Below, piece after piece: positions 1 through 15,774 of a DNA stretch of 64,000 bases; position 1 is the stretch's first letter; the number at the start of each line of letters is the position of its first letter. Below the pieces are notes generated by a model. The model was not told the origin of the DNA. It saw only the letters and a list, made by a program, of their open reading frames with translations, and ran no database searches. Both the position numbers and the translations under genes were made by a program. Source of the DNA: Alistipes sp. (GTDB lineage: Bacteria; Bacteroidota; Bacteroidia; Bacteroidales; Rikenellaceae); NCBI GenBank assembly GCA_017937125.1, contig JAGBEH010000001.1, forward strand, positions 186,001 through 250,000, written 5' to 3'.

Positions 1-1761
1 AAGGTTTCCGACTCCGCATCGCTCGGCGTCGGCGGCATTGCGGGCGTGGCGGCAGGCAAGCTGGCCGACTGCTCTACGGGAGAGAAGATATTGAGCGTCA
101 GCACCGATATGTCGCGCAACGTATATTGCGGCGGCATAGCGGGTTATTCTACGGCTGCCGTGGAGAACTGCGTCAATGTAATGTCGGTCTCCAATACGCT
201 GTACCGCAGCGGCGACGCGGTTTACAACGAATATACGGGCGGTATTGTCGGCTATCAGGAGTTGGGCAGCGTTAAAGGCTGCACCAACCGCGGCTCGCTC
301 ATATCCTCTTCGAACCAGCAATACCTCTGTCTGGGCGGTATCGCGGGTACGTTTGCCAACGGCGAGGCCGAAAACAACGTCAATCTGGCCAAGATAGATT
401 TGCAGGGCGATGCGTCGGCGGCTATCAAGGGCGTGAGATACGCTAAGGTCGGCGGACTGTACGGCTCGTTCAACGCAGCGCAGGGCGCTTCCGACAACGA
501 CAGCAAGAACAGCGGCCCCATAACCGTAACCAATATCGAGAGCGCTACGAACAACTCGTCGCAATTGCAGTTGGGCGGTATTTTCGGCGACCTGAATTCC
601 AAAACGCCCGTTTCGTCATTGAGCAACTCGGGCAATATCACCGTAACCCTCATCGCCAACTTCAATCACTTCGCCATAGGCGGTATTGCGGGTGCAACCG
701 AATGCGGCGTGTCGGATTCGACCAACGAGGGAGCCGTACTGCTCAATAATGTCGCGGTAATTCATAATACCGCGAAGATCTACTACGGCGGTATCGCAGG
801 CTGGAACAATGCGGGGGAAAACAACATATATCTCAAATGCGTGAACAACGGCGAACTTGCCGTAGCCACGAAATCGACCGAGGTCAATGTGCTTCCTTCG
901 TTCGTGGGAGGTATTCTCGGATATACCGAGTATCCCGTCACGGTGAAAAGCTGCGACAATAACGGATACGTGAACAACTCGGGAGCCAATAACCGTTACG
1001 ACGGCCTGTTCTCGTCGGCTGGCGGCATCGTCGGCGCCATAGTCGATACGCCTGCCGAAATCGACGACTGCCATTCGACGGCCAATACCCGAAACTATGC
1101 TTACAACCGTACGGTCGCTATGGATAAGCCGAACACGATGTCGCATTGCGGCGGCGTGGTGGGATGTGCCTTAGGCGAGAGCTCTTCGGACATCGTACGT
1201 ATCAGCAACTGCTCCAGCACGGGAGTTCTCGAGAACAAGCGTTCGACGGCGGCGGGTATCGTCGGCTTCGCCCAATACGCCTCCGTTTCCGACTGCCGTT
1301 TCACGGGCAGAATCATCGGCAGCGGTCCTCACTTCGCGGGAGGTATCGCGGGATGTCTCAGCAACTCCACGGTCACGGGATGCGTCGTGAAGTCTACCGA
1401 TATGTACAGCCACAGCGGTTACGGCATCAACAACCTGAACTATTTCGGTGTTTCCGGTATCGCGGGATATATGTACGATAACTCGTCGATTACCGATTGC
1501 AAGGCGTTTGCCGTGCTCATCCAAAATGCGCAGTCTACGGCTACGCCCGACGAGCACCTCGGTATGGGGCTTATCGGCGGCATCACGGTTCCGACCGCCA
1601 CTGTCAGCAACTGCGGTCTGGGCGGCTCGTTCCACACGGGCGGCGGAGGCAATGCCGCGAACCTGATACTTACGGTCAATTCCGACAATTTCGGGACATG
1701 CATCATCGGCGACGGCAACGCCTCGACGAGCGGATGCTATTATTGGAACGGCCAGGAATGA
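1..1761 (+). CDS. GLUG-repeat surface protein, 5' part outside window
   Basis: The reading frame is open from base 1, so the true start and any signal peptide lie upstream of the window. The visible 586 residues are a series of roughly 25-45 residue repeats built on a GGI(A/V)G core followed by a (D/N)C-x-N-x-G-x-(V/I) strand, the pattern of the GLUG motif found in Bacteroidetes surface proteins and expected to form a beta-helix-like stack. The C-terminal half aligns almost repeat for repeat with the gene at 1947-5273 (shared stretches such as YYGGIAGWN, GPHFAGGIAG, GMG-L), so the two are tandem paralogues. It ends in CYYWNGQE. The next gene starts 28 bases later, so co-transcription is likely. 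Ligand unknown; an adhesin-like or surface scaffold role is inference. Confidence 0.85.
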   Translation, partial: KVSDSASLGVGGIAGVAAGKLADCSTGEKILSVSTDMSRNVYCGGIAGYSTAAVENCVNVMSVSNTLYRSGDAVYNEYTGGIVGYQELGSVKGCTNRGSLISSSNQQYLCLGGIAGTFANGEAENNVNLAKIDLQGDASAAIKGVRYAKVGGLYGSFNAAQGASDNDSKNSGPITVTNIESATNNSSQLQLGGIFGDLNSKTPVSSLSNSGNITVTLIANFNHFAIGGIAGATECGVSDSTNEGAVLLNNVAVIHNTAKIYYGGIAGWNNAGENNIYLKCVNNGELAVATKSTEVNVLPSFVGGILGYTEYPVTVKSCDNNGYVNNSGANNRYDGLFSSAGGIVGAIVDTPAEIDDCHSTANTRNYAYNRTVAMDKPNTMSHCGGVVGCALGESSSDIVRISNCSSTGVLENKRSTAAGIVGFAQYASVSDCRFTGRIIGSGPHFAGGIAGCLSNSTVTGCVVKSTDMYSHSGYGINNLNYFGVSGIAGYMYDNSSITDCKAFAVLIQNAQSTATPDEHLGMGLIGGITVPTATVSNCGLGGSFHTGGGGNAANLILTVNSDNFGTCIIGDGNASTSGCYYWNGQE

Positions 1762-1789
1762 TATGACACCATTGACTAAATCTAAACAT

Positions 1790-1918
1790 ATGAACAAGAA
1801 AACCAGTGCGTACGAGGCGCCGCAAATTTTATGGAAATTTGTCCTCGCTGAAGAGGGTTTCGCCCTCAGTAATGAATTCTCGCTCGAAGAAGTAGATGAA
1901 AAGGACGGGGAGTGGTAA
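1790..1918 (+). CDS. 42-residue conserved-style small peptide
   Basis: An uninterrupted 43-codon frame lies between two GLUG-repeat genes: it starts 28 bases after the first stops and ends 28 bases before the second starts. The product begins MNKKTSAYEAPQ, has a hydrophobic/aromatic middle (ILWKFVLAEEGFALS) and an acidic end (EEVDEKDGEW). This Lys-rich start, EAP, central GFA and acidic tail resembles short unannotated peptides I associate with Bacteroidales surface-lipoprotein operons; that recollection is not checked here. It has no signal peptide or Cys. It could be a regulatory leader peptide, a secreted or modified peptide, or a partner of the GLUG lipoprotein. Function unknown. The spacing and clean frame support a real gene. 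Confidence 0.6.
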   Translation: MNKKTSAYEAPQILWKFVLAEEGFALSNEFSLEEVDEKDGEW

Positions 1919-1946
1919 CGGATTGTCGAACAGAAAAAAAGAACAG

Positions 1947-4900
1947 ATGATGAAAAAGATTTTTATCGTATTGGGTTTGGCAGTCGGAGTACTGACATCC
2001 TGCACGCAAGACATTTCCGAAGATGCCGTTAAAACGGACGGCAAGAAGGAATTCTCCGTAGTTCTCGAATCTACGCGCACCCATCTCGGCGACAAGAACG
2101 ACGAGACGGGCAAATATAAGGTTTGCTGGTCGAACGGCGACAGAATCGTCGTGAACGGACAGCAAAGCAATTCCCTCTCGGGCATCGAAGAGGGTGCGAC
2201 TACCGCCACCTTCGGCGTGGAGGGGATAGTGAACGCTCCTTATGACATAATGTATCCCGCATCCGCCTATGAGGACGGCAATGCCGTGCTGCCTGCCGTG
2301 CAGGCTTTTGCACCCGCATCCTTCGCCGAGGGTTCCGCCGTGCTCGTCGGACGTTCGGCAACCGAGGAAATATCGCTGAAAAATGCATGCGGATTTATCA
2401 GACTGCAACTCACCAAAGGCAACGAGTTGTGCGGGATAGTCAAGTACGTTAAATTCTTCGGCAATGCCGACGAGGCCGTCTGCGGACGGTTCGCCGTCGA
2501 TTATGAGGGCGGAAAGCTCACTCTGCCCGAGACCGCGGCCGATGACGCCAAGGTCATTACGCTCGAATGCGGCAACGGCGAGGCCGTTACCGCCGATGCC
2601 AAATCGTTTATCGTGGCTGTCCCCGCGCAGACCTTCGCAAGCGGTTTCACTTTCGAAATCGTCGATACCGAAGGCCATCTTATGCGTGTAAAGAGCAACA
2701 AGGAGCAGATCGTCGAAGCGGGGTCCGTTCTCGCTATGCCGTCGGTGGCATTCAAACCTACCGAGACCCTTCTGGATATCGAGATCAGTACGGCTGCCGA
2801 TATGGTGGCGCTTGCGGATGCCGTTAAGGGCGGTTTCTACGGCGGCTCTTATTATCTTGCCAACGATATAGATATGTCTGAGGTGACGGGTTGGGAAGGT
2901 ATCGGCGTCAGGGACGATTCCGACGGTTTTGCGGGAACGTTCGACGGCCGCGGCCATTCGATCAAGAATTTCCGATCGTCGGCCCCGATCTTCAAGTTCG
3001 CACTCCGCAATTCGGTTATCAAGGATGTCGTTATCGACGAGTCGTGCCGTTTCGAACTCAATACGACCGTTACCGACGATAACGTATATCTGGCGCCGCT
3101 CGTAGGTATGGGCCGCGGCGTAGTCGAGAACTGCGTGAACAATGCCGAGGTGGTGTATACCGGTACGGCCAATCACACCGTTTACGTCGGCGGCATTATC
3201 GCACGTCTCTATCGCCAGGGCCGTGTCAGCGGTTGCGTGAACAATGCGGCCGTAAGCGCCGATTGTGTGGATACCGGTAAGGATGTCAATGTCGGCGGCG
3301 TTGCAGCGGCTTTCGACAGAAGTAATGACGGCGATTCGGCGGAATTCTACGGCAATACCAATAACGGAACGGTTACCAATAACGCCGATACCAAGACCCT
3401 GACGGTCGGCGGTGTCGTGGGACGCAATTCGCACTTGTCGTGTATCGTTACCGACTGCATCAACAAAGGAGAGGTCGTATCCGCTTGCAATGCCGTAAAC
3501 AATTCGAATATCAATTCAGCCAACTATATCGGTGGTGTTTGCGGCCGCAATACGGGTAAGATGCGCAACTGCACCAACTTCGGAAAGGTTCTCTCGTCGT
3601 CGAATTATTATCAGACCCGTATCGGAGGCGTCTGCGGTACAGGTTTCAGCAATACGCTGATCGAAGGCTGCGTCAATGAGGCCTCGGCTTCGGTAACGTA
3701 CAGCAACGAGCGTAAGAACTCGGCCGACGATAAAGTCCTGCTCAACGAGGAGCATTTGGGCGGTGTGATAGGCCAGTGCGAGGGCAGCATCGAGAACTGT
3801 ACGAACAAAGGTGCCGTAAATTCGATGTCGGGCTGCGTCAGCGCCAACGTCGGCGGTGTCTGCGGATATGTAAGAAATGCGGCTACCGTTCTCTCGGGCA
3901 ATGTCAATGAGGGTGCGGTTACCGTCGAAAACGATGTGACCAACAACACCGTGGGCGGCGTTTACGGTTCGTTCGGCAAGGCGCAGACCGTTACCGATGC
4001 CGTAACGGGCAACAGCGGAACGGTTACCGTGAAGAAAGTATATGGGGCAAATAACTCCTATCTGCGCTGCGGCGGTATCGTCGGCTTCGTTTACCCGACG
4101 ACCACGCTCGCGAACATCAAGAACTCGGGTGCGATTACGGTAGATTTGCAGGCGGCATTCAACTACTATGCCGTAGGAGGTATTGCGGGAGTTGTCGAAA
4201 GCGGTGCTTCGAACGTTACCAACGAGGGCAAGATTTCGGTAAACAACAATGTCCTGCTGACGAACAAGAACAGCAAGATATATCTCGGCGGTATAGCGGG
4301 CTGGAACTGGAAGGCTACTGCGAACCTCGTGGTTTTCGACGGATGCGACAACAATGCCGAGGTGGAGGTACTCACCTCCGACAAGGCGTTCAGCCTGCTG
4401 CCCGTATTCAACGGCGGTATTCTCGGCTATACGGGATTCCCCGTGGAGATAAAGGGTTGCAACAATACCGCATATCTGAATACGACGGGCGCCGATGCCA
4501 AGTACAACGGCATCTTCTCGGCTACGGGCGGTATTGTCGCTGCTGTAAACGGAGCTTCGGCTGCGATTACGGATTGTAACGTGACGTCCGATGTCCGCCA
4601 TTTCATATGGAACAATACATGGGACAATCCGGCCGCTTCGGCTTCGAGCGGCGGCGTTGTCGGCTGCGCCATAGGTGCGGACGATGCGAACAGGATAACC
4701 GTTACGAACTGCTCGTGCACGGGGTCGGTAGAAGGACGACGTGCAAGTGCGGGCGGTATCGTCGGGTATGCGAAATTCGTTTCGGTGGCCGACTGCCGCT
4801 TCAAGGGCGAAATCATCGGTTACGGGCCTCATTTCCCGGGCGGTATAGCCGGTTCTCTCGTGGATTCGTCGATTGCGAACAGCTCGGTAGAATCGACCTG

Positions 4901-5273
4901 CATCTACTGCCATTCGGCAACCGATGTGACTGCCGATGATGTTACGGTTTCGTATTTCAATGTAGGCGGAATCGCCGCATATACTTCGGGCGTATCGTCG
5001 ATTTCGGAGTGCAGCGTGGTTGCGACGCTCGTTCAGAACTCGGCTTCGAAAGTGACCGTCGATAACCATCTCGGAATGGGTATGCTCGTCGGCTGGGTTG
5101 CAGGCGGAACGACCACGATCTCCGACTGCGGCTTCGGCGGCTCCTTCTATACGGGAGACAAGAAACCGCAGAATCAGATACTGGTGCTCGACGGACAGAA
5201 CTATGAGTCTTGCGCTGTAGGCAGAGGAACCGCGACGCTGAACAGCAACTATTACTGGGGCGGTCAGGAGTAA
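1947..5273 (+). CDS. Lipoprotein with fimbrillin-like N-terminus and GLUG-repeat stalk
   Basis: 1108 residues from the first of two adjacent ATGs (1947, 1950). An ATG at 1896 in the same frame would add 17 residues in front of a perfect lipoprotein signal and overlap the small peptide gene, so I reject it. The signal ends at lipobox LTSC (Cys19). Residues about 30-285 look like a fimbrillin/Mfa-like domain (TRTHL, a W-x-N-GDRIVVNG segment, alternating strands). A linker with NDIDMSEVTGW and GTFDGRGHSIKNF, usual before GLUG stacks, follows. From about 360 to the end there are roughly 18 GGI/GGV repeats ending in NYYWGGQE. Expected to be anchored in the outer membrane. A hairpin at 5288-5318 separates it from the phosphoesterase downstream. 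Confidence 0.88.
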   Translation: MMKKIFIVLGLAVGVLTSCTQDISEDAVKTDGKKEFSVVLESTRTHLGDKNDETGKYKVCWSNGDRIVVNGQQSNSLSGIEEGATTATFGVEGIVNAPYDIMYPASAYEDGNAVLPAVQAFAPASFAEGSAVLVGRSATEEISLKNACGFIRLQLTKGNELCGIVKYVKFFGNADEAVCGRFAVDYEGGKLTLPETAADDAKVITLECGNGEAVTADAKSFIVAVPAQTFASGFTFEIVDTEGHLMRVKSNKEQIVEAGSVLAMPSVAFKPTETLLDIEISTAADMVALADAVKGGFYGGSYYLANDIDMSEVTGWEGIGVRDDSDGFAGTFDGRGHSIKNFRSSAPIFKFALRNSVIKDVVIDESCRFELNTTVTDDNVYLAPLVGMGRGVVENCVNNAEVVYTGTANHTVYVGGIIARLYRQGRVSGCVNNAAVSADCVDTGKDVNVGGVAAAFDRSNDGDSAEFYGNTNNGTVTNNADTKTLTVGGVVGRNSHLSCIVTDCINKGEVVSACNAVNNSNINSANYIGGVCGRNTGKMRNCTNFGKVLSSSNYYQTRIGGVCGTGFSNTLIEGCVNEASASVTYSNERKNSADDKVLLNEEHLGGVIGQCEGSIENCTNKGAVNSMSGCVSANVGGVCGYVRNAATVLSGNVNEGAVTVENDVTNNTVGGVYGSFGKAQTVTDAVTGNSGTVTVKKVYGANNSYLRCGGIVGFVYPTTTLANIKNSGAITVDLQAAFNYYAVGGIAGVVESGASNVTNEGKISVNNNVLLTNKNSKIYLGGIAGWNWKATANLVVFDGCDNNAEVEVLTSDKAFSLLPVFNGGILGYTGFPVEIKGCNNTAYLNTTGADAKYNGIFSATGGIVAAVNGASAAITDCNVTSDVRHFIWNNTWDNPAASASSGGVVGCAIGADDANRITVTNCSCTGSVEGRRASAGGIVGYAKFVSVADCRFKGEIIGYGPHFPGGIAGSLVDSSIANSSVESTCIYCHSATDVTADDVTVSYFNVGGIAAYTSGVSSISECSVVATLVQNSASKVTVDNHLGMGMLVGWVAGGTTTISDCGFGGSFYTGDKKPQNQILVLDGQNYESCAVGRGTATLNSNYYWGGQE

Positions 5274-5287
5274 CCGTCCCCGTTACG

Positions 5288-5318
5288 GAAGCGGGCGAGG
5301 GTGATGCCTCCCCGCTTC
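5288..5318 (+). other. Intercistronic stem-loop
   Basis: GAAGCGGG and GAGG pair with CCTC and CCCGCTTC around a six-base loop, with one unpaired C. No T-run follows, so it is more likely an mRNA stability or processing hairpin between the GLUG gene and the phosphoesterase gene than a terminator. Confidence 0.5.
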
Positions 5319-5348
5319 ACTGAAATAAAAACCTGAAACGAACCATTT

Positions 5349-6920
5349 ATGCGAAAACTGTTTTATACCTTAATAACCGCGCTGTTCTTCATTGCCTGCA
5401 CGGGCAGCAACGACCAGCTCGCATCCCGCGACCCGTTCAATGTCCCCGATAAGGCGGGATATTGCGTCAAGGGCGTGGTGTTCGACGAGTATTACAATCC
5501 GATCGAGGGGGTTGTCGTGAGCGACGGGCTCCTGACGACCAAGACCGACCGCAACGGCTGGTTCTGGCTCGACAGCGATTTGTCCGTACGCCGTTTCGTG
5601 TCGGTGACGGTGCCTTCGGGTTTCGAGGTGCCGAGCGAGGACGGGGTGCCGCGCTTCTTCGAGCGCATACCCGACGGTGCGACCTCGTACCGTGCGGAGT
5701 TCCACCTCCAAAGCCGTCGCGACAACGGCGACCGCTATACGATATTTATGGTCGGCGACCCCCAAATCCGCAGGCGCACTGCGGGCTACGACAAGTTCGC
5801 CTACCATTCGATAGATATGTTCGAGGATATGTGCCGCGATATGAACGAAGTCTGCTCCACTATCACCGACCGTCCCGTGTACGCCATCGGTTTGGGCGAC
5901 CTGACGCACGAGGATGCGTCGATGTGGGAGACGTATCTTCAGGGTATGAAGACCCTCAAGTTCCCGATGTTCGGCGTGATAGGCAACCACGACCATAATA
6001 CCTACGCTATGACCGAACCCGAAGCCATACGCCCCTACGAGGACAATATCGGGCCTACGAACTATTCGTTCGATTTGGGCAGGCTCCATTTCATCTGTCT
6101 CGACAATATCATTATGAAGTGCGACGGCTCGCGCGGATATACCGACGGCCTTACGGACGAGGTATTCACCTATCTGTGCAACGACCTGAAGTACGTGCCC
6201 AAGGACAAGATAATTATGATATGCAGCCACAGCTCGATGTTCGGCAAACCGGGGAAGGATCCCGTGGACGGGGACAAACACGGTCAGGACTATGCGCGCG
6301 TGCTGTCGCAGTACAAGTACGTGCACTCGTGGGCGGGGCACTCGCACATCAATTTCAACAAGGTATATTCCAAGGTCGAAAACCGCCTGAGCAATATCGA
6401 GGGGCATATCGTTGCGCGCGCTACGGGGGCCTTGTGGCTCAACGAATGGGTCTGCTCCGACGGTACGCCGCGCGGCTATTACGTAGTCGATGTGGACGGC
6501 GAGGATATACGGTGGTACTATCACCCCTGCGGCAACCAGTTGGGGGTGGCCAACGGTTTCGACGACGAATACCAGATGAGGGCCTATGCACCGGGCGATT
6601 ACGACGACAATTACGTGTATGTCAATGTGTGGGGCTGGGATGCCCTGTGGGGCAACGTGTCGTATTCGGACAACGGCAAGGCCGGACGGCCTATGGCCAA
6701 GATAGTCACTTATGACAAGGCGTACAAGGATTGTTGCGATCTGAGCAACTCCAAACCGGGCAATCTGGCCAAGGAGGAGTTTAAGCCCGACAAGAATGTA
6801 CAGCATATTTTCCGCATAATACCTACGAGCGGCGCCACGTCGTGCGACATCGAGGTCACCGACCGTTTCGGCCGCACCTATTCCACGTCGCTCGACTGGG
6901 GTTCCGATTCCGCGAAATAA
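5349..6920 (+). CDS. Secreted calcineurin-like phosphoesterase, lipoprotein
   Basis: 523 residues with a lipoprotein signal (FFIAC, Cys17). Residues about 38-122 form a carboxypeptidase-regulatory-like beta domain (GVVFDEYYNPIEGVVVSDG) typical of the N-terminal module of Bacteroidetes metallophosphoesterases. The central domain has the dimetal motifs in order: GDPQ (Asp137), GLGDLTHED (Asp184), GNHDHN (Asn213-His214), MICSHSSMF and SWAGHSH. A C-terminal beta domain follows. A hydrolytic, two-metal phosphoesterase at the cell surface is well supported; the substrate (phosphosugar, phosphodiester or phospholipid) is not identifiable. A paralogue lies at 8789-10249, each preceded by a GLUG gene, which points to duplication of a two-gene unit. 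Confidence 0.9.
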   Translation: MRKLFYTLITALFFIACTGSNDQLASRDPFNVPDKAGYCVKGVVFDEYYNPIEGVVVSDGLLTTKTDRNGWFWLDSDLSVRRFVSVTVPSGFEVPSEDGVPRFFERIPDGATSYRAEFHLQSRRDNGDRYTIFMVGDPQIRRRTAGYDKFAYHSIDMFEDMCRDMNEVCSTITDRPVYAIGLGDLTHEDASMWETYLQGMKTLKFPMFGVIGNHDHNTYAMTEPEAIRPYEDNIGPTNYSFDLGRLHFICLDNIIMKCDGSRGYTDGLTDEVFTYLCNDLKYVPKDKIIMICSHSSMFGKPGKDPVDGDKHGQDYARVLSQYKYVHSWAGHSHINFNKVYSKVENRLSNIEGHIVARATGALWLNEWVCSDGTPRGYYVVDVDGEDIRWYYHPCGNQLGVANGFDDEYQMRAYAPGDYDDNYVYVNVWGWDALWGNVSYSDNGKAGRPMAKIVTYDKAYKDCCDLSNSKPGNLAKEEFKPDKNVQHIFRIIPTSGATSCDIEVTDRFGRTYSTSLDWGSDSAK

Positions 6921-6947
6921 CTGTGTCAATCCAAACTGTAACCATAT

Positions 6948-8774
6948 ATGAAAAAAACACTCTTCTTATTCGTCGTTTCGGCATTCCTGTTCGTCGGGAC
7001 GGCAGTGGCCGAAGGAATTTCGTCGGCCAAGGATTTTGTCGCATTCGTGACTGCGGCGAATGCGGGCGAGGACATTACCCCGTGGGCAGACCGCGACGGG
7101 GCGATATGTCTCAAGTCGGACATAGATATGGGCAAAGTCAAGAATTTCGTACCCGTAGCCTTGTTCGAGGGCGTATTCGACGGTTGCGGGCACGCAATCA
7201 AAAACTGGAAAACGACTGCCGGACTGTTCCACATAGTCTCCGAACACGGCATAGTGCGCAATCTCGTGATCGACGCCTCCTGCTCGATGAAGTGCGTGGA
7301 CCCGAGCGGCGAGGAGGAGTTTTATGCGGGATTCGTCGCCGATGTGAACCACGGGACGATAGAGCACTGCGTAAATCGCGGCGCTATTTCGCACCGTTCC
7401 GCCAAGTCGCTCAAGACCAATTATGTCGGCGGCATATGCGGTATGAACCGATATGTCATAATATATTGCGACAATTACGGCCAGATTTCGTCGTCGGGCA
7501 GTTTCGGCGGCAATCTCGATAACAGCAACGCGGCCATCTATTTCGGCGGCGTCGTGGGCGGCAGCCCCAATCGTCCGCTGCCGTGTGCCTTCATCGGTTA
7601 CTGCAACAATTACGGGGTCGTGACGTACAGCGGCTCGTTCCCCCAGAACCATATTGGCGGCGTGATAGGCAACAGCCTGCGCACGAAGGTGAAATTCTGC
7701 GTCAATCGCGGCAATGTCACCGTTGCCGCCAAGTCGATTTCGGAGTCCGATGTTCCTCAGGGCTTGCAGGTCGGCGGCGTGTGCGGTATTACCAAGGGCG
7801 ATATAGTATGTTGCGACAACTTCGGCGAAGTCATTACGCGCTGCGACATCTTCTCGATGGTCGGCGGCATCGTAGGCTCCACGCACTATGCCCTTACGGT
7901 CGGCGATTGCGTCAATTATGCCGATGTGACGGCTTCGGGCTACAAGGGAGCTGCCGTCGGCGGCATAGTGGGGCAGGCGGCGCGTCCTATCGTAGCCGCA
8001 CAGTGCCTGAACAAGGGCAATGTCAAGTTTACGGGCGAAAGTCCGAAAGGCCGCACCGCATTGGGAGGCATAATCGGCAACGGTTTCATACGCGATGATT
8101 CGAAATGGGCTATCGCGGTTGTCGAGTGCCGCAACGAGGGCGATATTTCGTGCGGCTATGCGAACAACACCTACAACAGCGTCCGCGGCATACATGTCGG
8201 CGGCCTGTGCGGGTATCTTGCGGGCAATGAGCAGATCAACGCCGTGTTGCGTTACAGTGTCAATACGGGATCGGTGAAGAGCGAAGCGGGACGTATGGCG
8301 GGCATCGCGGCTCTCTCGTCGTTCTGCGACATTCAGGAGTGCGTAAATGAGGGTTCGGTAACCGGCTCGGCAGAGGTCGGCGGAGGTATTTGCGGCGTAT
8401 TCGAAGCAGGCGAGATGCGCGATTGCACCAACAAGGCCGATGTATTCGTGAAGAGCGTCGGGAATGCGGGCGGTATCGTCGGCAGCACGAAGGCCGCCAA
8501 GCCGACTTCGATCGTCGGCTGCCGCAACAGCGGTGTAGTGTGCGGCCGCTTCGGCTTTACTGCCGCCATTCTCGGGCAGAGCGTCAATGCTACCGATTGC
8601 GTGGACGGCTGCGGTGTCGGCGGTGCGGTCGGCACGCCGTCGCAGAATGCCGAGACCGCCCCGCGCATAACGGAGGAGAATTACAAGCTTTTCATCCTCG
8701 GACGCAATATCGAGCGCAACAAAGCTGCGGTCGGCAAAAATAAACCTTGCTATTATTGGAACGGAAAAGAATAA
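6948..8774 (+). CDS. Secreted GLUG-repeat protein
   Basis: 608 residues with a classical signal peptide (cleavage likely after VGTAVA), not a lipoprotein. Residues 23-120 hold the DIDMGKVKNF...FDGCGHAIKNW segment that precedes GLUG stacks, followed by about 14 GGI/GGV-centred repeats (YVGGICGMN, MVGGIVGST, and so on) with the CVN-x-G/V return. It ends in CYYWNGKE, matching the ends of the two GLUG genes upstream. It lies 27 bases after the first phosphoesterase gene and 14 bases before the second, so all are probably one transcript. Compared with the 1108-residue paralogue it lacks the fimbrillin-like domain and lipid anchor, so it may be released or held by partners. Confidence 0.87.
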   Translation: MKKTLFLFVVSAFLFVGTAVAEGISSAKDFVAFVTAANAGEDITPWADRDGAICLKSDIDMGKVKNFVPVALFEGVFDGCGHAIKNWKTTAGLFHIVSEHGIVRNLVIDASCSMKCVDPSGEEEFYAGFVADVNHGTIEHCVNRGAISHRSAKSLKTNYVGGICGMNRYVIIYCDNYGQISSSGSFGGNLDNSNAAIYFGGVVGGSPNRPLPCAFIGYCNNYGVVTYSGSFPQNHIGGVIGNSLRTKVKFCVNRGNVTVAAKSISESDVPQGLQVGGVCGITKGDIVCCDNFGEVITRCDIFSMVGGIVGSTHYALTVGDCVNYADVTASGYKGAAVGGIVGQAARPIVAAQCLNKGNVKFTGESPKGRTALGGIIGNGFIRDDSKWAIAVVECRNEGDISCGYANNTYNSVRGIHVGGLCGYLAGNEQINAVLRYSVNTGSVKSEAGRMAGIAALSSFCDIQECVNEGSVTGSAEVGGGICGVFEAGEMRDCTNKADVFVKSVGNAGGIVGSTKAAKPTSIVGCRNSGVVCGRFGFTAAILGQSVNATDCVDGCGVGGAVGTPSQNAETAPRITEENYKLFILGRNIERNKAAVGKNKPCYYWNGKE

Positions 8775-8788
8775 AAATCCATACAAAG

Positions 8789-10249
8789 ATGAAACGATTG
8801 ATATTATCCATATTCATATTTGCGACGGCGTGCGCCGCCTACGCGCAAACCCCCAATGTCTCGGGACGTGTTACTTCGACCGACGGCAAACCCGTTGCGG
8901 GTGTCGTGGTCAGCGATGGCCTCAATTGTACGCAGACGGATGCGGACGGCCGTTATACTATGACGTGCGACCTCAAAAACAGACATTTCATAATGCTGTC
9001 GGTGCCTGCCGAGTACGAAATTCCCGCGCGCCACAGTCTGCCTACTGCCTTCAAGCGCATTCCGCGTTATGTGGAGACATTCACGGCCGATTTCGAACTG
9101 ACGCCACGCCGTGAGTCGGCCGACCACCATACGCTGATAGTGCAGGGCGACCCGCAGATAAAGGATTTCCATATCGACAATTCCGCCGAAGCATACCGCG
9201 ACGTGGTCATTCCCGATATGATAGAGACGCGCAAGACGATTACCACACCGTGCTACGGCATCGGGTTGGGCGACCTGATTTACAACGAGATGAACGTGTA
9301 TCCGATATATCTCCAGAATACCGACCGTATTGAAAATATGGTGCATTTCAACGTCATCGGCAATCACGACCACGACCAGACGACGCTGCTGAAGGACTCG
9401 TTGGGAACTATGCACTATGAAATGCATCTCGGCCCGACGTGTTATTCGGCGAATATCGGCCGCATACATTATATATTTATCGACGACATTCTCTACGACC
9501 GCAAGGACACCAAAGAGTCGTACCGTCACGGCATTTACGACGAGACGGCGCACTGGCTCGAAGAGGATTTGAAGTTTGTGCCCAAAGACAAGATAATTAT
9601 GATTTGCGCTCACGCTCAGATGTTCAACAAGCAGACGGTGCTGGTACGCCGCAACAAGAATTTCGACCGTTACCGCAAGGCGCTTACGGAGTTCAAGTAC
9701 GTCTATTCGTGGGCGGGACACAACCACCATACCTATCTATATACGAGCGAGCCGGAAAAGAACTACGGCATCGACAACGTGACGTCGATTACGGTAACCA
9801 AATCTACGGGTGCGCTGCGTCTCAACCGTCTTTTGAACAACGACGGTGCGCCGCAGGGGTATTTCGTCGTGGATGTGAACGGCGAAGATGTATCGTGGTA
9901 CTACAAATGTTGCGGCAAGGATCGCAGCAGCCAGATGAATGTCTATTCGCCGCTGCGTTCGAACAGCGAGTTCGTTTTGGCTAACGTTTGGGCGCACGAT
10001 AACAAGTGGGGTGCCGTAGAATGGTGGGAGAATGGCGTGAAGGCAGGCGAAATGGAGGCTTGCCGCGCTTTGGACCCCGATTACGTGGATCTGTATGCGA
10101 CCGTGACGAACAAGACGACGCGCAAATACTGCAAGCCTATCGAGTCGTTCCATATGTTTAGAATCAAACCTTCGGAGGGCATACGCGAGGGCGAGGTGCG
10201 CGTTATGGACCGTTTCGGCAATCTCTATATTCAGAAAGTCAAGTGGTAG
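8789..10249 (+). CDS. Secreted calcineurin-like phosphoesterase (paralogue 2)
   Basis: 486 residues from the ATG at 8789. A longer in-frame start at 8747 would overlap the preceding gene and spoil the signal peptide. The signal peptide ends AAYA-QTPNVSG. It has the same architecture as the gene at 5349: N-terminal regulatory-like beta domain (VTSTDGKPVAGVVVSDG), dimetal catalytic domain with QGDPQ (Asp121), GLGDLIYNE, VIGNHDHD, MICAHAQMF and SWAGHNHHT, then a C-terminal beta domain. Unlike the first copy it is not a lipoprotein, which parallels the anchored versus soluble difference between the two neighbouring GLUG proteins. Substrate unknown. Confidence 0.9.
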   Translation: MKRLILSIFIFATACAAYAQTPNVSGRVTSTDGKPVAGVVVSDGLNCTQTDADGRYTMTCDLKNRHFIMLSVPAEYEIPARHSLPTAFKRIPRYVETFTADFELTPRRESADHHTLIVQGDPQIKDFHIDNSAEAYRDVVIPDMIETRKTITTPCYGIGLGDLIYNEMNVYPIYLQNTDRIENMVHFNVIGNHDHDQTTLLKDSLGTMHYEMHLGPTCYSANIGRIHYIFIDDILYDRKDTKESYRHGIYDETAHWLEEDLKFVPKDKIIMICAHAQMFNKQTVLVRRNKNFDRYRKALTEFKYVYSWAGHNHHTYLYTSEPEKNYGIDNVTSITVTKSTGALRLNRLLNNDGAPQGYFVVDVNGEDVSWYYKCCGKDRSSQMNVYSPLRSNSEFVLANVWAHDNKWGAVEWWENGVKAGEMEACRALDPDYVDLYATVTNKTTRKYCKPIESFHMFRIKPSEGIREGEVRVMDRFGNLYIQKVKW

Positions 10250-10271: not shown

Positions 10272-12356
10272 ATGAAAAGAGTGACGATACTGGTTGCCGC
10301 CCTTGCAATGGTTTGGACGGCTTCCGCCCAACAGAAAATGAGTTGGGACGACGCCTATGCCAAGGCGGACGAGATAATTTCCCGATTGACGGTTGCCGAG
10401 AAACTGGAGATGACCCACGGCTATCGCAACTTCTTCTTCAACGGTGTGCCCGAAAAGGGTGTCCCGTACGTATTCCTGTCGGATGCCTCGCAGGGGGTGT
10501 GCCTGAACCGCGACCTGCGTGGCAGCGGACTTGTCGAGCAACTCGACAAATCGACGGCATTTCCCGCGCCGATAATGCTTTCGGCGACGTTCGACCCCGC
10601 GCTGGCTTACGATTATGCCGAGGCCGTAGGCGAGGAGTGTCAGGCGAATAACGTAAAGGTGCTGTTGGGGCCGGGGTTGAATATCTACCGCAACTCGCAG
10701 TGCGGCCGCAATTACGAGTATTTCGGCGAAGACCCGTTTCTGACATCGCGTATGACCGAGAATTATGTTCGCGGCATACAGTCTACGGGCACAGCGGCCT
10801 GCATCAAACATTTTCTGGGCAACAGCACCGAATTTTACCGCCGCCGTTCCAACTCGGTTATCGACGAGCGCGCCCTGCACGAAATATATATGCCGGGGTT
10901 CAAGGCAGGCGTGGATGCTGGCGTGGCGACCGTGATGACGGCCTATAACCAGCTCAACGGCGAGTGGTGCGGCCAGAACCGCTATGTGATTACGGACTTG
11001 CTGCGCGGCGAACTCGGGTTCCGCGGCGGCGTGGTGTCGGACTGGTCGTCTACTTACGACTGGGAGAAGATCATCCGCTCGGGGCAGAACATAGATATGG
11101 GCGGAACACCGAAATTCTATATCGAAAAGGTCGCCAAAGACCTCTATGCCGAAGGCAGGGTGAGCGAGCGGGAGATAGAGGATATGATCCGCCCCATAAT
11201 CGCCACGAGTCTGGCTTTCGGCCTTTACGAACCGAATAATTACGCCAAGCCTCTGGATGCTATGTTCGCCCGCAGTGCCGAGGTGGCATACAGGGTGGCG
11301 TGCGAAGGCGCCGTGCTGCTCAAGAACGACGGTATTCTCCCCATCGATGCCGCTAAGCGTCGCAATATTCTGCTGACGGGACGGTTCGCGACCGAATGTC
11401 CGCGCGGCAAGGGCTCGGCCGAAGTTATAGGTTTCAACAGCGTTACGATGACCGATGCCCTGCGCGAAAAGTTCGGCAACGATCTCACTGTCGCCAAGAA
11501 CCCGACTGCGGAGATGATAGCGGCGGCCGATGTCGTGATATTGAGTGTCGGGACGATCGATGCCGAGAGTACCGAGCGCCCGTTCGCACTGCCGTCGGCC
11601 GATGAGAATTTTATCAGGATGTGCGTCGAAAACAATCCCAATACGGTCGTGGTCGTCAATTCGGGTTCGGGCATCCGTATGACCGGCTGGGCGGATAAGG
11701 CCGCAGCGATACTCTACGACTGGTATCCGGGACAGAACGGATTGACGGCTATGGCCGATATCCTTGTCGGCAGGATCAATCCGTCGGGCAAGCTGCCTAT
11801 GACCATCGAGAAGAATTTCTCCGACTCGCCCGCGAAAAACAGCGTGCCGAAGGGCGCGAAGATGATGCGTAATGTAAACGAGTATTTCTTCCGCGTTTAC
11901 GACGTCAATTACGACGAGTCGGTTCTGGTCGGCTACCGCTGGTACGAGACCAAAGGCATCGAACCGCTCTATCCGTTCGGTTTCGGGTTGTCGTACACCA
12001 CTTTCTCGCTCGGGAAGGCCAAACTGTCCGCAAAGAGCCTGAGCGAAGACAAACCGCTGAAGGTAAGTGTTATGCTGACGAATACGGGCGACAGGGAAGG
12101 CGCCGAGGTCATACAGCTTTACGTGTCGGAGAAACATCCGACCGTTTTGCGCCCGAAAAAGGAACTGAAGGGCTTCAGGAAAGTAACGCTTGCGCCTAAA
12201 GCGAAGACCGTAGTGGAGTTCGAAGTGGAACGCAAAGACCTTGCGTTCTGGTGCGACAAGACCCACGACTGGAAGGTCAATGCGGGCGAATACGTGATTT
12301 CGCTCGGCACATCTTCGGCCGATATAGCCTGCGAACTTGCGGTCGCGGTCGAATAG
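10272..12356 (+). CDS. Exported glycoside hydrolase family 3 (beta-glycosidase)
   Basis: 694 residues with a signal peptide cleaved after about Ala19 (TASA-QQK). The GH3 N-terminal barrel (about 30-300) shows LTVAEKLEM, GRNYEYFGEDPFLT, the KHF motif (Lys179-His180) and the nucleophile in VVSDW (Asp257). The second GH3 domain spans about 310-560 and a fibronectin-III-like domain the last 110 residues (PFGFGLSYTTF, GDREGAEVIQLYV). Length is normal for periplasmic GH3 beta-glucosidases and beta-xylosidases; the exact sugar cannot be read from the sequence. It starts 22 bases after the phosphoesterase gene, so it belongs to the same transcript as the GLUG/phosphoesterase locus. Confidence 0.93.
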   Translation: MKRVTILVAALAMVWTASAQQKMSWDDAYAKADEIISRLTVAEKLEMTHGYRNFFFNGVPEKGVPYVFLSDASQGVCLNRDLRGSGLVEQLDKSTAFPAPIMLSATFDPALAYDYAEAVGEECQANNVKVLLGPGLNIYRNSQCGRNYEYFGEDPFLTSRMTENYVRGIQSTGTAACIKHFLGNSTEFYRRRSNSVIDERALHEIYMPGFKAGVDAGVATVMTAYNQLNGEWCGQNRYVITDLLRGELGFRGGVVSDWSSTYDWEKIIRSGQNIDMGGTPKFYIEKVAKDLYAEGRVSEREIEDMIRPIIATSLAFGLYEPNNYAKPLDAMFARSAEVAYRVACEGAVLLKNDGILPIDAAKRRNILLTGRFATECPRGKGSAEVIGFNSVTMTDALREKFGNDLTVAKNPTAEMIAAADVVILSVGTIDAESTERPFALPSADENFIRMCVENNPNTVVVVNSGSGIRMTGWADKAAAILYDWYPGQNGLTAMADILVGRINPSGKLPMTIEKNFSDSPAKNSVPKGAKMMRNVNEYFFRVYDVNYDESVLVGYRWYETKGIEPLYPFGFGLSYTTFSLGKAKLSAKSLSEDKPLKVSVMLTNTGDREGAEVIQLYVSEKHPTVLRPKKELKGFRKVTLAPKAKTVVEFEVERKDLAFWCDKTHDWKVNAGEYVISLGTSSADIACELAVAVE

Positions 12357-12549: not shown

Positions 12550-15500
12550 ATGAAACTTAAGAATGTTGCGACTGCGGCCCTTGCGGCCGTGTCCGTGATT
12601 GCGGCTTACGGTGCTGCGCCGCAAACCGACGGCAATCCTGCCGAAGCGGCGAAACCCTACACCGTTTATATGGTGTCGAACTCCCATCTCGATACCCAGT
12701 GGCGCTGGGATATTCGGCTCACGATCGACGAATATCTCTACAATGCAGCCGTGCAGAACCTCGCACTGCTCGATCGTTATCCTCACTATGTCTTCAACTT
12801 CGAGGGAGCGGTGAAATACAAGTGGATAAAAGAATATTATCCCGATCTGTATGCCCGCATCGGCGAGTATGTCCGTCAGGGGCGCTGGAATCTTTCGGGA
12901 GCATCGTGGGATGCCAACGACCCCAACATACCCTCGTCGGAGTCGTTCATCCGCAATATCCTGCTGGCGCAGGAGTTCTACAAGCGGGAGTTCGGCAAGG
13001 TGTCGAGGGACCTGTTCCTGCCCGATTGCTTCGGGTTCAGCCAGACTATTCCCACTCTCGGCAGCCACTGCGGCTTGATAGGACTTTCGACGCAGAAACT
13101 GTCGTGGCGCTCGCAGCCGCTGGTCGGCGACCGCAAGGCTCCGTTCGCCGTGGGCTTGTGGCAGGGCGTGGACGGCTCGCGCATAATGGCTGCGCTGGAA
13201 CCCGGCGGGTATTGGTGGCGCGACCTCCCCGAAGGCGACCTGACGCAGAACGAGACGTTCATAAAGAATGCGCAGGCGTCGCCTGACGGAAAGGCTTACC
13301 GCTATTTCGGCAACAGTCTGGCTAACGGCAAGGGGGATCGCGGCGGTTCTACGGCGCCCCGCAGCGTCGAAATCATAGGCGAGGCCATCGCCGACGGCAA
13401 AGGTCCCGTGCGTGTGGTGTGTGCCACCTCGTCGCAACTTTATGAGGAGTACCTGCCCTTCGACAAACATCCCGAGCTGCCCGTTTTCGACTGCGAAATG
13501 CCGCTCGACGTGCACGCCCCCGGGTGTTATACGGCGCATTCGGAGATGAAACGCTATAACCGCCGCAACGAGCAGCTTGCCGATGCGGCCGAACGTTCGG
13601 CCGTTATGGCCGATTGGCTCGGCGGCGCAGAGTATCCCAAGACCGAAATCAACGATGCTTGGCAGCGTTTTCTGTGGCACCAGTTCCATGACGACCTGAC
13701 GGGTACGAGCATATGGCAGGCATATACTTATTCGTGGAACGACGAGTATCTCGCCCAGAGCCGTTTCTGCGATGCGATAGATGCATCGACCGCAGCCGTG
13801 GCGTCGGTGTTGGATACGCAGACGCAGGGTCTGCCGATTGTGGTATATAATCCGACGGCGTACGAGCGGCGTTCGGTCGTCGAGGCCGAGATCGAGCTGG
13901 ACCCCGCAGTCGCCGATGTGACGGTGTACGATGCGGACGGGCGGCGTACGGCATCCCAAATCATCGCGCGCGAGGGCCGTCGTGCGAAGATACTTTTTGC
14001 TGCGCGGGTCCCCTCGGTGGGGTATGCGGTTTACGAAGTGCGCGAAGGGGCGGCCGAACTCAAAGGGCGTTTGAAGGTCTCGGGAAATGTCATCGAGAAT
14101 GCCGTTTACAGAGTGACTGTAGACAGGGTTACGGGCGACATATCGTCGGTGGTGGATAAACGCTACGGCCGCGAACTCGTAGCTGCGGGCAAGGCGTTCG
14201 GTTTGCAGGTGCTGACGCCGAACGTGTCGGACAAATATCCCGCTTGGGAGATACGCAAGGAGACGCTCGACCGGGAACCCGAACGCGTGGCGGACGGTGT
14301 GAAGATTACGGTAGCCGAACGCGGTGCGGTGCGCGCCGCCCTGCGTGTGGAGCGCCGCTACGGCGACTCGCGGTTCATCCAGCTTATTCGGCTGACGGAC
14401 GGCGGCGACGATGACCGCATAGACATAGTGACGGATGCCGACTGGCGCACTCCGAATGCACTGCTCAAGGCCGCTTTCCCGACGAGCGTATCCTCTGACG
14501 AGGCCGTTTACGATGTGGGCATAGGTGTTCAGCATCGTCGGACCAATACGCTGCGGGCACACGAGACGTTCGCCCACCATTGGGCCGACCTGTCGGACGG
14601 AAAGTACGGCGTCGCGGTGCTCGACAACTCGAAATACGGCTGGGATAAGCCGAATGCGAATACCTTGCGGCTCAGTTTGCTGCATACGCCGTCGGCAAAA
14701 CGCAGATTTACCGACCAGGCCGAACTCGATTTCGGTCTGCATACGATGACATACTCGATAGTTTCGCATCGCGGCGATTATGCCGCCGCCCGATTGGCCG
14801 AGAAGGGCGAGGCGCTCAACTGTCCGCTTATGGCGTTCGTGGCGTCGAAGCACGACGGAAAGGTCGGACGCCGCTTCTCGTTCGTCGCTTCGGCCTCCGC
14901 GCAGCTCGCCGTCAAGGCCGTTAAAAAGGCCGAGAACGGCGACGGGTATATCGTGCGTCTGTATGAAACTGCGGGCAGGGCGGCCGATAATGTCGCCGTG
15001 ACGTTTGCCGCGCCGATAGTTTCGGCCGAGGAGGTGAACGGCATAGAGGAGCGCAAGGGCGATGCCCGTTTCGACGGCAACAGACTCTATGTTTCGACAG
15101 GAAAGTTCGCTCCCGTAAGTTTCAGGGTGCGGCTGGCCGAAGCGGGTTACGGTGTAACACCTGCCGAACATCGGTTCGTCGGGCTGCCTTATAACCGCAA
15201 TGCCATATCGAGTGACCAGTTCAAGAGCCTGGCTGGTATGGATGCCAGATACAATTCGTTCGCGGCCGAGATAATGCCCGAGATCATTACCTATATGGGC
15301 GTACCGTTCCGCCGCGGCAGGGCCGACGTGAAAAACGCCCTCAACTGTGCTGAAAGCGTCGTCATACCCTTGCCCGACGGCAAATACGACAAGGTGCACA
15401 TACTTACCGCCGCTACCGACGGCGACCGTGCGGCGACATTCGAGATAGACGGCCGCAAATACGAAGTCGTCGTTCCGCAATACGACGGTTTCCGTGCACA

Positions 15501-15774
15501 ATGGGCGTGGAGCGACAGAACGTCGTCGTTCGTCAAAGAGGGCAGGATAGCCTATATAGGCGACCACCGCCACAAGATGAACGGACGCAACGAGGCTTAT
15601 GCGCAGACCTATCTGTACGATTTGGTGCTCGATGTCGATGACGGCGCCCGTGAACTGTGGTTGCCCGAGGACAAGAATATCACCGTCTTCGCGGTAACCG
15701 TGTCGCGCAGCGGTTTCGACGATGTCGAGCGGGCGTGCGAACCCCGTGCGCTGCCGATGACGGAGTTGAAGTAG
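12550..15774 (+). CDS. Exported glycoside hydrolase family 38 alpha-mannosidase
   Basis: 1074 residues with a signal peptide (cleavage near AAYGA). The GH38 catalytic domain begins with the zinc-binding SNSHLDTQW (His46, Asp48). LFLPDCFGFS carries the expected nucleophile (Asp159), and TAHSEMKRYNRRNEQL and WHQFHDDLTGTSIW add the other metal/substrate histidines. The remainder (about 420-1074) is the beta-sandwich region usual for this family, so the length is normal. Likely a periplasmic exo-alpha-mannosidase acting on host or dietary mannosyl glycans. No SusC/SusD pair or other mannan enzyme is nearby. A terminator precedes it, so it probably has its own promoter in 12463-12549; I see no clear TAnnTTTG there. 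Confidence 0.93.
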   Translation: MKLKNVATAALAAVSVIAAYGAAPQTDGNPAEAAKPYTVYMVSNSHLDTQWRWDIRLTIDEYLYNAAVQNLALLDRYPHYVFNFEGAVKYKWIKEYYPDLYARIGEYVRQGRWNLSGASWDANDPNIPSSESFIRNILLAQEFYKREFGKVSRDLFLPDCFGFSQTIPTLGSHCGLIGLSTQKLSWRSQPLVGDRKAPFAVGLWQGVDGSRIMAALEPGGYWWRDLPEGDLTQNETFIKNAQASPDGKAYRYFGNSLANGKGDRGGSTAPRSVEIIGEAIADGKGPVRVVCATSSQLYEEYLPFDKHPELPVFDCEMPLDVHAPGCYTAHSEMKRYNRRNEQLADAAERSAVMADWLGGAEYPKTEINDAWQRFLWHQFHDDLTGTSIWQAYTYSWNDEYLAQSRFCDAIDASTAAVASVLDTQTQGLPIVVYNPTAYERRSVVEAEIELDPAVADVTVYDADGRRTASQIIAREGRRAKILFAARVPSVGYAVYEVREGAAELKGRLKVSGNVIENAVYRVTVDRVTGDISSVVDKRYGRELVAAGKAFGLQVLTPNVSDKYPAWEIRKETLDREPERVADGVKITVAERGAVRAALRVERRYGDSRFIQLIRLTDGGDDDRIDIVTDADWRTPNALLKAAFPTSVSSDEAVYDVGIGVQHRRTNTLRAHETFAHHWADLSDGKYGVAVLDNSKYGWDKPNANTLRLSLLHTPSAKRRFTDQAELDFGLHTMTYSIVSHRGDYAAARLAEKGEALNCPLMAFVASKHDGKVGRRFSFVASASAQLAVKAVKKAENGDGYIVRLYETAGRAADNVAVTFAAPIVSAEEVNGIEERKGDARFDGNRLYVSTGKFAPVSFRVRLAEAGYGVTPAEHRFVGLPYNRNAISSDQFKSLAGMDARYNSFAAEIMPEIITYMGVPFRRGRADVKNALNCAESVVIPLPDGKYDKVHILTAATDGDRAATFEIDGRKYEVVVPQYDGFRAQWAWSDRTSSFVKEGRIAYIGDHRHKMNGRNEAYAQTYLYDLVLDVDDGARELWLPEDKNITVFAVTVSRSGFDDVERACEPRALPMTELK

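What the first reader, a model, noticed from the sequence alone, without database searches (positions are those of the whole stretch)
1..10249. Alternating GLUG-repeat protein / secreted phosphoesterase module, duplicated in one locus
Seen: GLUG protein, small peptide, GLUG lipoprotein, phosphoesterase lipoprotein, GLUG protein, phosphoesterase, all same strand with gaps of 14-75 bases. In the first GLUG-phosphoesterase pair both proteins are lipoproteins; in the second both have ordinary signal peptides, so pairing seems to preserve localisation. I know of no described function for GLUG proteins working with calcineurin-like phosphoesterases. A surface complex in which a repeat scaffold presents a phosphoesterase to a phosphorylated glycan or lipid is a plausible new system; that function is inference.
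Basis: partly seen in the sequence, partly recalled or inferred. Interest (0 to 1): 0.72.

Follow-up and report, generated by a model that had tools for sequence, protein, structure and literature searches.

The report
Phosphoesterase uptake locus with GLUG proteins
A gut bacterium (Alistipes-like) carries a nutrient-uptake gene cluster built around two phosphate-cleaving enzymes, and one of these is so closely tied to a repeat (GLUG) protein that in many relatives the two are a single protein.

Summary
The genes, strand, gaps and signal peptides are as described, but they are the second half of a SusC/SusD-type uptake locus that starts 8.5 kb before the window: ECF sigma / FecR / SusC / SusD / BACON-GLUG / small peptide / GLUGa / MPPa / GLUGb / MPPb / GH3 / GH38. 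The GLUG-phosphoesterase partnership is well supported for one pair: GLUGb and MPPb are separate genes here but one ~945-residue protein in a second locus of the same genome and in 36 of 39 rows of the MPPb clade. The 'duplicated GLUG-phosphoesterase module' is not supported: the two phosphoesterases come from an old duplication, whereas GLUGa is closest to the BACON-GLUG protein, not to GLUGb. MPPa is a lipoprotein with acidic residues after the cysteine (probably surface); GLUGb and MPPb have ordinary signal peptides (probably periplasm). The metal ligands are kept. Some sister loci add an organophosphate antiporter and an exo/endo-phosphatase, once with NanE. Best reading: a PUL-like locus that captures and dismantles a phosphate-bearing glycan, with GLUG repeats as substrate-holding parts. 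Fold, activity and substrate are not shown; phosphorylated mannose or ManNAc is my leading guess. New variant of a known kind.

The parts
1..1761 (+). 3' part of the BACON+GLUG lipoprotein gene (whole gene C4:184450-187761, 1103 aa; the rest lies upstream of the window)
   Evidence: Pfam BACON and GLUG over cut-off
1790..1918 (+). small peptide, ends DGEW; of the same make as small ORFs upstream of GLUGa-type genes in other loci
   Evidence: sequence; expression unknown
1950..5273 (+). GLUGa: GLUG lipoprotein; its N-terminal part looks fimbrillin-like (recalled signature, no Pfam hit)
5349..6920 (+). MPPa: MetallophosN/C calcineurin-like phosphoesterase, lipoprotein
6948..8774 (+). GLUGb: GLUG-type repeat protein, ordinary signal peptide; fused to MPPb in relatives
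   Evidence: (no Pfam hit)
8789..10249 (+). MPPb: MetallophosN/C calcineurin-like phosphoesterase, ordinary signal peptide
10272..12356 (+). GH3 family glycosidase (55% identical to a GH3 after the fused gene in L056)
12550..15774 (+). GH38 family glycosidase (alpha-mannosidase family)

Best explanation
A SusC/SusD-type uptake locus whose catalytic core is a pair of metallophosphoesterases. Proposed path: (1) the BACON-GLUG and GLUGa lipoproteins and SusD hold a phosphate-bearing glycan at the cell surface; (2) the lipoprotein MPPa cuts phosphoester bonds outside; (3) SusC imports the pieces; (4) in the periplasm GLUGb, a repeat solenoid fused to or docked on MPPb, positions the pieces for a second phosphoester cut, and GH3 and GH38 trim sugars; (5) in some sister loci an exo/endo-phosphatase removes remaining phosphate or an organophosphate antiporter imports the sugar phosphate. 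An ECF sigma/FecR pair with an STN-domain SusC senses the substrate. Shown by sequence: gene content, conserved order, fusion, conserved metal ligands, two classes of N-terminus. Inferred: localisation, catalysis, substrate, solenoid fold, sensing. Some phosphoester-bearing glycan or other polymer as substrate: about 0.6. Phosphorylated mannose or N-acetylmannosamine in particular: about 0.3.
For: SusC, SusD, FecR, BACON-GLUG upstream and an ECF sigma factor. GLUGb and MPPb fused in locus C6 of the same genome and in 36 of 39 MPPb-clade rows. An MPPa-class gene stands upstream of GLUGb-MPPb in 33 of 37 GLUG-type loci read. The MPPa and MPPb branches of the tree show the same split into two locus types. 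Metal ligands kept in 39 of 39 MPPb and 35 of 35 MPPa rows. MPPa lipoprotein in 34 of 35. GH3 and GH38 in the window run. In sister loci: antiporter of the GlpT/UhpT/PgtP family in 5 of 37 runs and EEP phosphatase in 7 of 37, both also in C6 and G101; the C6 EEP is similar to PDB 4c1r, named mannosyl-6-phosphatase; NanE in C6.
Against: No activity, binding or expression data. The window's own run lacks the antiporter, EEP and NanE; the last was labelled only in C6. The C6 EEP is closer to 3g6s, of no named function, than to 4c1r. Only 14 of 95 MetallophosN genes in 12 genomes are near a GLUG gene, so these enzymes do not need GLUG in general. A strict lipobox rule also fired on 7 of 39 MPPb rows; I judged these false because the cysteine lies in the mature part. 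No structure model.
Confidence: 0.55

Rival explanations
1. A phosphate-scavenging system like the PusCD loci of Flavobacterium: organic phosphates are captured for their phosphorus, not for sugar.
For: SusC/D-like genes beside phosphodiesterases, including one annotated with PF00149 in PUSI, are described as low-phosphate-induced (PMC8115612, passages). EEP and organophosphate antiporter in sister loci.
Against: The window run has GH3 and GH38; the paper contrasts PUS loci with PULs that carry CAZy enzymes. ECF sigma/FecR/STN-SusC control points to substrate sensing (inference). The gut is usually not poor in phosphate (recalled).
Confidence: 0.15
2. A nucleic-acid or nucleotide uptake locus: the phosphoesterases cut phosphodiester bonds of DNA, RNA or nucleotides.
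For: [quoted passage not shown] PF03372 also covers nucleases.
Against: Sugar-side partners: GH3, GH38, NanE, sugar-phosphate-type antiporter. No nucleoside or nucleotidase family in the proteins scanned.
Confidence: 0.1
3. The locus degrades teichoic acids or bacterial capsules with phosphodiester backbones; glycerol-3-phosphate or ManNAc units are the products.
For: The antiporter's best PDB match is GlpT (1pw4, 5.3e-40) and NanE handles ManNAc-6-phosphate. The ManNAc-containing linkage unit of wall teichoic acid is recalled.
Against: The antiporter is below the GlpT cut-offs. No glycerophosphodiester phosphodiesterase family in the proteins scanned. GH38 does not fit.
Confidence: 0.12
4. 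One reading: pair 1 and pair 2 arose together from one pair.
For: Order and N-termini in the window look like two pairs.
Against: Window GLUGa is closest to BACON-GLUG, not to GLUGb. In relatives such as L022, MPPa follows BACON-GLUG and GLUGa stands after the fused gene. The MPPa/MPPb split is old.
Confidence: 0.05

Closest known systems
Polysaccharide utilization loci (SusC/SusD type) with ECF sigma/anti-sigma control
   Same: SusC with STN domain, SusD, FecR, ECF sigma, surface-type lipoproteins after SusD, glycosidases GH3 and GH38
   Different: Main enzymes are two metallophosphoesterases; the lipoproteins after SusD carry GLUG repeats; one GLUG unit is fused to an enzyme in relatives
PusCD phosphate utilisation systems of Flavobacterium (PMC8115612, passages)
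   Same: SusC/D-like complex beside phosphodiesterases
   Different: Here GLUG proteins, glycosidases and the sigma/FecR pair; phosphate control not tested
SusC/D loci with PF00149/PF01663 phosphodiesterases in a Bacteroidetes survey (PMC6499787, section 9)
   Same: SusC/D with PF00149-type enzymes; function open
   Different: The survey counted loci without CAZymes; the window has GH3 and GH38. GLUG is not mentioned in that section
Yeast alpha-mannan PUL of Bacteroides thetaiotaomicron (recalled; PDB 4c1r seen)
   Same: GH38 in the window; EEP enzyme in sister loci similar to 4c1r, named mannosyl-6-phosphatase
   Different: No GH76, GH92 or GH99 among the 10 window-locus proteins scanned; the main phosphoesterases are of the calcineurin-like fold family

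Membership tests
SusC/SusD-type PUL | adjacent SusC (TonB-dependent) and SusD genes | tested here: met
   Pfam
SusC/SusD-type PUL | glycan-active enzymes in the same run | tested here: met
   GH3 and GH38 over cut-off
SusC/SusD-type PUL | dedicated regulator | tested here: met
   FecR with C-terminal domain; ECF sigma by homology to the L097 gene, whose L021 counterpart is over the NCBIfam sigma70-ECF cut-off
SusC/SusD-type PUL | induction by and growth on a glycan | not testable with these tools
   needs culture
PusCD phosphate utilisation system | SusC/D with phosphodiesterase or phosphomonoesterase | tested here: met
PusCD phosphate utilisation system | induction by phosphate depletion | not testable with these tools
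   needs culture
Calcineurin-like phosphoesterase with MetallophosN/C | PF16371 and PF16370 over cut-off | tested here: met
   both window proteins
Calcineurin-like phosphoesterase with MetallophosN/C | metal-ligand residues (positions recalled for the superfamily) | tested here: met
   39 of 39 MPPb and 35 of 35 MPPa rows; first motif reads DPQ instead of DxH
GLUG protein (PF07581) | GLUG motif over Pfam cut-off | tested here: inconclusive
   met for BACON-GLUG and GLUGa, no hit at E<=0.001 for GLUGb; GLUGb is homologous to GLUGa
Yeast alpha-mannan PUL | GH76, GH92 or GH99 mannan enzymes (recalled) | tested here: not met
   none found in the 10 locus proteins scanned with Pfam

The most novel reading that the evidence does not exclude
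A dedicated phosphoglycan class of uptake loci in Alistipes and related Bacteroidales. A surface phosphoesterase and a periplasmic GLUG-solenoid phosphoesterase cut a phosphate-linked glycan into sugar phosphates, which an organophosphate antiporter imports intact (for example ManNAc-6-phosphate, then NanE), so the cell keeps the phosphoester. GLUG would then be a glycan-gripping solenoid that serves as an enzyme's substrate-binding half.
Probability: 0.25. Interest if true: 0.75.

Novelty: new variant of a known kind. Interest (0 to 1): 0.5.

Why it matters
I know of no described job for GLUG proteins in gut bacteria (recalled; the three literature searches that used the word, listed no paper on it by title). 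A natural fusion to an enzyme, in 36 of 39 clade rows, gives GLUG a testable role as the substrate-holding half of a phosphoesterase. The locus also turns the survey remark that 576 SusC/D loci without CAZymes carry phosphodiesterases (PMC6499787) into a concrete case with a predicted division of labour between surface and periplasm.

Tried and rejected
Paired duplication of GLUG and phosphoesterase: rejected. Degenerate, inactive phosphoesterases: rejected, ligands kept in all MPPa and MPPb rows; one of 14 rows with the fimbrillin-like part has a gap at the last two positions. Split GLUGb/MPPb as an assembly fault: rejected, the same split is in Alistipes montrealensis kh20 (L021, L098) and in G101. 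Close PDB relatives by sequence: none for GLUGb at E<=0.01; for the phosphoesterases only purple acid phosphatases at E about 0.002 over a short stretch. Structure prediction was off, so no fold, interface or complex test was made. The enrichment does not control for the general clustering of PUL genes; it used 12 of the genomes, chosen by me, each with at least two MetallophosN genes; 4 of the 12 had no GLUG match at E<=1e-10. The label MPP+GLUG on ~815-residue proteins comes from a shared N-terminal part that I call fimbrillin-like from memory, not from GLUG repeats. In one search, 132 of 133 phosphoesterase rows were used; one of 349 residues was dropped. That tree is a quick one (SH-aLRT support only) and warns of long branches. 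The loci are the best of a capped list picked for similarity to the window enzymes, so 36 of 39 is a figure within that clade, not across these enzymes at large.

Literature: 10 searches of an open-access library. None listed a paper on a GLUG-phosphoesterase pairing by title; searches used the word GLUG, (calcineurin-like phosphoesterase with polysaccharide utilization and SusD) found 0 papers. Seen beyond listings: passages of PMC8115612, PMC11216935, PMC12596196, PMC4021314; one passage and section 9 of PMC6499787. The yeast-mannan paper itself was not held and is recalled only.
Full report
What is there. The window is C4:186001-250000 of a 2.16 Mb genome in 12 contigs. Held genome G128, of the same genus, has a contig of the same length (752,845) and the same locus as Alistipes montrealensis kh20, so the organism is Alistipes-like. 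The genes of the finding are present with the stated strand and gaps. They are the second half of a longer run that starts before the window: an ECF sigma factor on the opposite strand (open frame L009 5465-6136; phmmer 2.5e-80 to the sigma factor of L097), FecR, SusC with STN, plug and barrel domains, SusD, and a BACON+GLUG lipoprotein whose 3' part opens the window. After MPPb come GH3 and GH38. This is the layout of a polysaccharide utilization locus.

A second locus of the same kind. Contig C6 of the same genome has FecR, SusC (54% identical), SusD (43%), BACON-GLUG, a small peptide ending DGEW, GLUGa, an organophosphate-type antiporter, an EEP phosphatase, NanE, MPPa, and then one 940-residue protein whose first half matches GLUGb (45%) and second half MPPb (50%). 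So the pair that is split in the window is naturally fused elsewhere in the same genome. Of the seven MetallophosN genes over cut-off in this genome, four lie in these two loci; the other three lie in two further loci without GLUG.

Relatives. A genome-contig scan with the four window/C6 phosphoesterases gave 76 loci from a capped list. I read 37 of them (L020-L053, L056, L059, L065) as the GLUG-bearing type. The other 39 are largely Chitinophaga and kin, many with SusC and SusD beside the phosphoesterase; only one (L094) has a gene labelled GLUG. In 33 of the 37 an MPPa-class gene stands upstream of GLUGb-MPPb, in 4 of these with one or two further phosphoesterase genes between; two lack it with flank held (L023, L051) and two begin at their contig edge (L020, L035). 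SusD is in the same run in 21 of 37; 12 of the other 16 runs reach the edge of the held stretch first. EEP is in 7, the antiporter in 5 and GH3 in 2 of the 37 runs; downstream flanks are often cut, so these are lower bounds. In G101 and in A. montrealensis the order is FecR-SusC-SusD-BACON/GLUG-MPPa-GLUGb-MPPb-sigma-EEP-antiporter, with the same split as in the window and no GLUGa (SusC of G101 reads as two frames). In G087 a different GLUG-like lipoprotein precedes a different MetallophosN enzyme and SusC, and an EEP and an antiporter lie about 1-4 kb away on the other strand: a possible second, independent pairing.

Tree. In a quick maximum-likelihood tree of 132 phosphoesterase rows the 36 GLUG-fused rows form one group (99*), sister to the three split rows (window, L020, L021; 99*). 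The MPPa side shows the same split: window and L021 against C6 and the rest, which include 14 rows with another N-terminal part. So MPPa and MPPb separated before the two locus types did, and have travelled together since. BLASTP among 11 GLUG proteins gives three classes that match across loci: BACON-GLUG, GLUGa, GLUGb. Window GLUGa scores 499-501 bits with window BACON-GLUG (over its repeat part), 456 with C6 GLUGa (over its whole length) and 145 with GLUGb. Repeat proteins are hard to place, and local exchange between the first two is likely, but this does not fit a duplicated GLUG-phosphoesterase pair.

How exclusive is the pairing. The GLUGb profile (A4) at E<=1e-60 matched 19 of 268 genomes of the family, all in the window's genus, and only the window's own genome among 393 of the order and 395 of the class. 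Several of the 37 loci come from records titled only 'Bacteroidales'; their genus was not checked. Of the 41 matches, 34 have an open frame of 890-985 residues, the length of the fusion. Three shorter ones (in L100, L105, L106) also hold parts of both domains; three are split with MPPb as next gene (window, G101, G128); one (L096) runs off its contig and cannot be told. For most of the 34 the phosphoesterase half was not read one by one. Over GLUG genes at large in 12 chosen genomes, 14 of 33 lie within 5 kb of a MetallophosN gene against 1.49 expected; seen from the other side, only 14 of 95 MetallophosN genes are near a GLUG gene. So GLUG is the partner of one branch of these enzymes, not of all.

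Enzyme and localisation. All MPPa (35) and MPPb (39) rows keep D, D, N, H, D, H, H, H at the expected positions; the first motif reads D-P-Q, where the three other MetallophosN enzymes of the genome have D-x-H. By a lipobox rule MPPa is a lipoprotein in 34 of 35 (the other lacks its N-terminus), with an acidic residue within seven positions after the cysteine in 34 of 34. The same rule fired on 7 of 39 MPPb-class rows, and a looser one on 18 of 39; on inspection the cysteine lies inside the hydrophobic stretch or in the mature part and an A-x-A-type site is present, so I read these as ordinary signal peptides. Surface versus periplasm is inferred from this (lipoprotein export signals of Bacteroidota are recalled).

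Function. Sister loci carry proteins that handle phosphorylated sugars: an antiporter of the GlpT/UhpT/PgtP family, below each family's cut-off so its ligand is open; an EEP protein similar to PDB 4c1r, named mannosyl-6-phosphatase, though closer to 3g6s, which has no named function; NanE, over its cut-off, in C6; and in L056 a mannose-6-phosphate isomerase three genes after the fusion, which may be unrelated. Antiporters of this kind also occur away from these loci: 12 of the 16 closest (E<1e-100) in 10 genomes are not beside the GLUG-phosphoesterase loci described here. The window adds GH38 and GH3. Together these point to a phosphate-bearing glycan, perhaps with mannose or ManNAc phosphate. 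A phosphate-scavenging (PusCD-like, PMC8115612) or nucleic-acid reading (PMC6499787) is not excluded.

Verdict. I rate it a new variant of a SusC/D uptake locus with a GLUG-phosphoesterase unit as its hallmark.

Noticed in passing
window 1790-1918; L015 up to 15880; upstream of GLUGa-type genes in L022, L025, L026, L028, L029, L030, L031, L036, L037, L038, L039, L044, L046, L053, L056: A small ORF of about 40-60 codons of one make (an early Y-x-x-P, a later S, an acidic tail usually ending near W) stands just before GLUGa-type lipoprotein genes. A narrow rule found it before 8 of 24 such genes; by eye 8 of 9 further regions looked at have one. Its role is unknown.
   Followed up: partly
L100 (G214:C47:1-9769): Three GLUGb-MPPb fusion genes in tandem, the third cut by the contig edge: the fusion itself multiplies.
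   Followed up: no
L022 14842-17283, L027 14822-17242, L056 6086-8545 and others: MPPa-like phosphoesterases of about 815 residues with an N-terminal part shared with GLUGa (fimbrillin-like, recalled): 14 rows in the tree, a second kind of fusion in the same loci.
   Followed up: partly
G137, G122, G146 and others; G091: MetallophosN genes are strongly multiplied in some genomes of the genus (up to 19 in a 1.9 Mb genome, G137), and G091 has them in open frames of 1,483-2,104 residues, so still other fusions exist.
   Followed up: no
own genome C6:414557-417139 (L018 8558-11140): Another EEP gene directly before a MetallophosN gene in a locus with a SusD-like gene nearby and no GLUG: EEP-phosphoesterase pairing does not need GLUG.
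   Followed up: no
L057-L092, Chitinophaga-type loci: A recurring run sigma-FecR-SusC-SusD-(~505 aa, DUF5689 in L067)-phosphoesterase, the enzyme with an RR-type (Tat-like) N-terminus.
   Followed up: no
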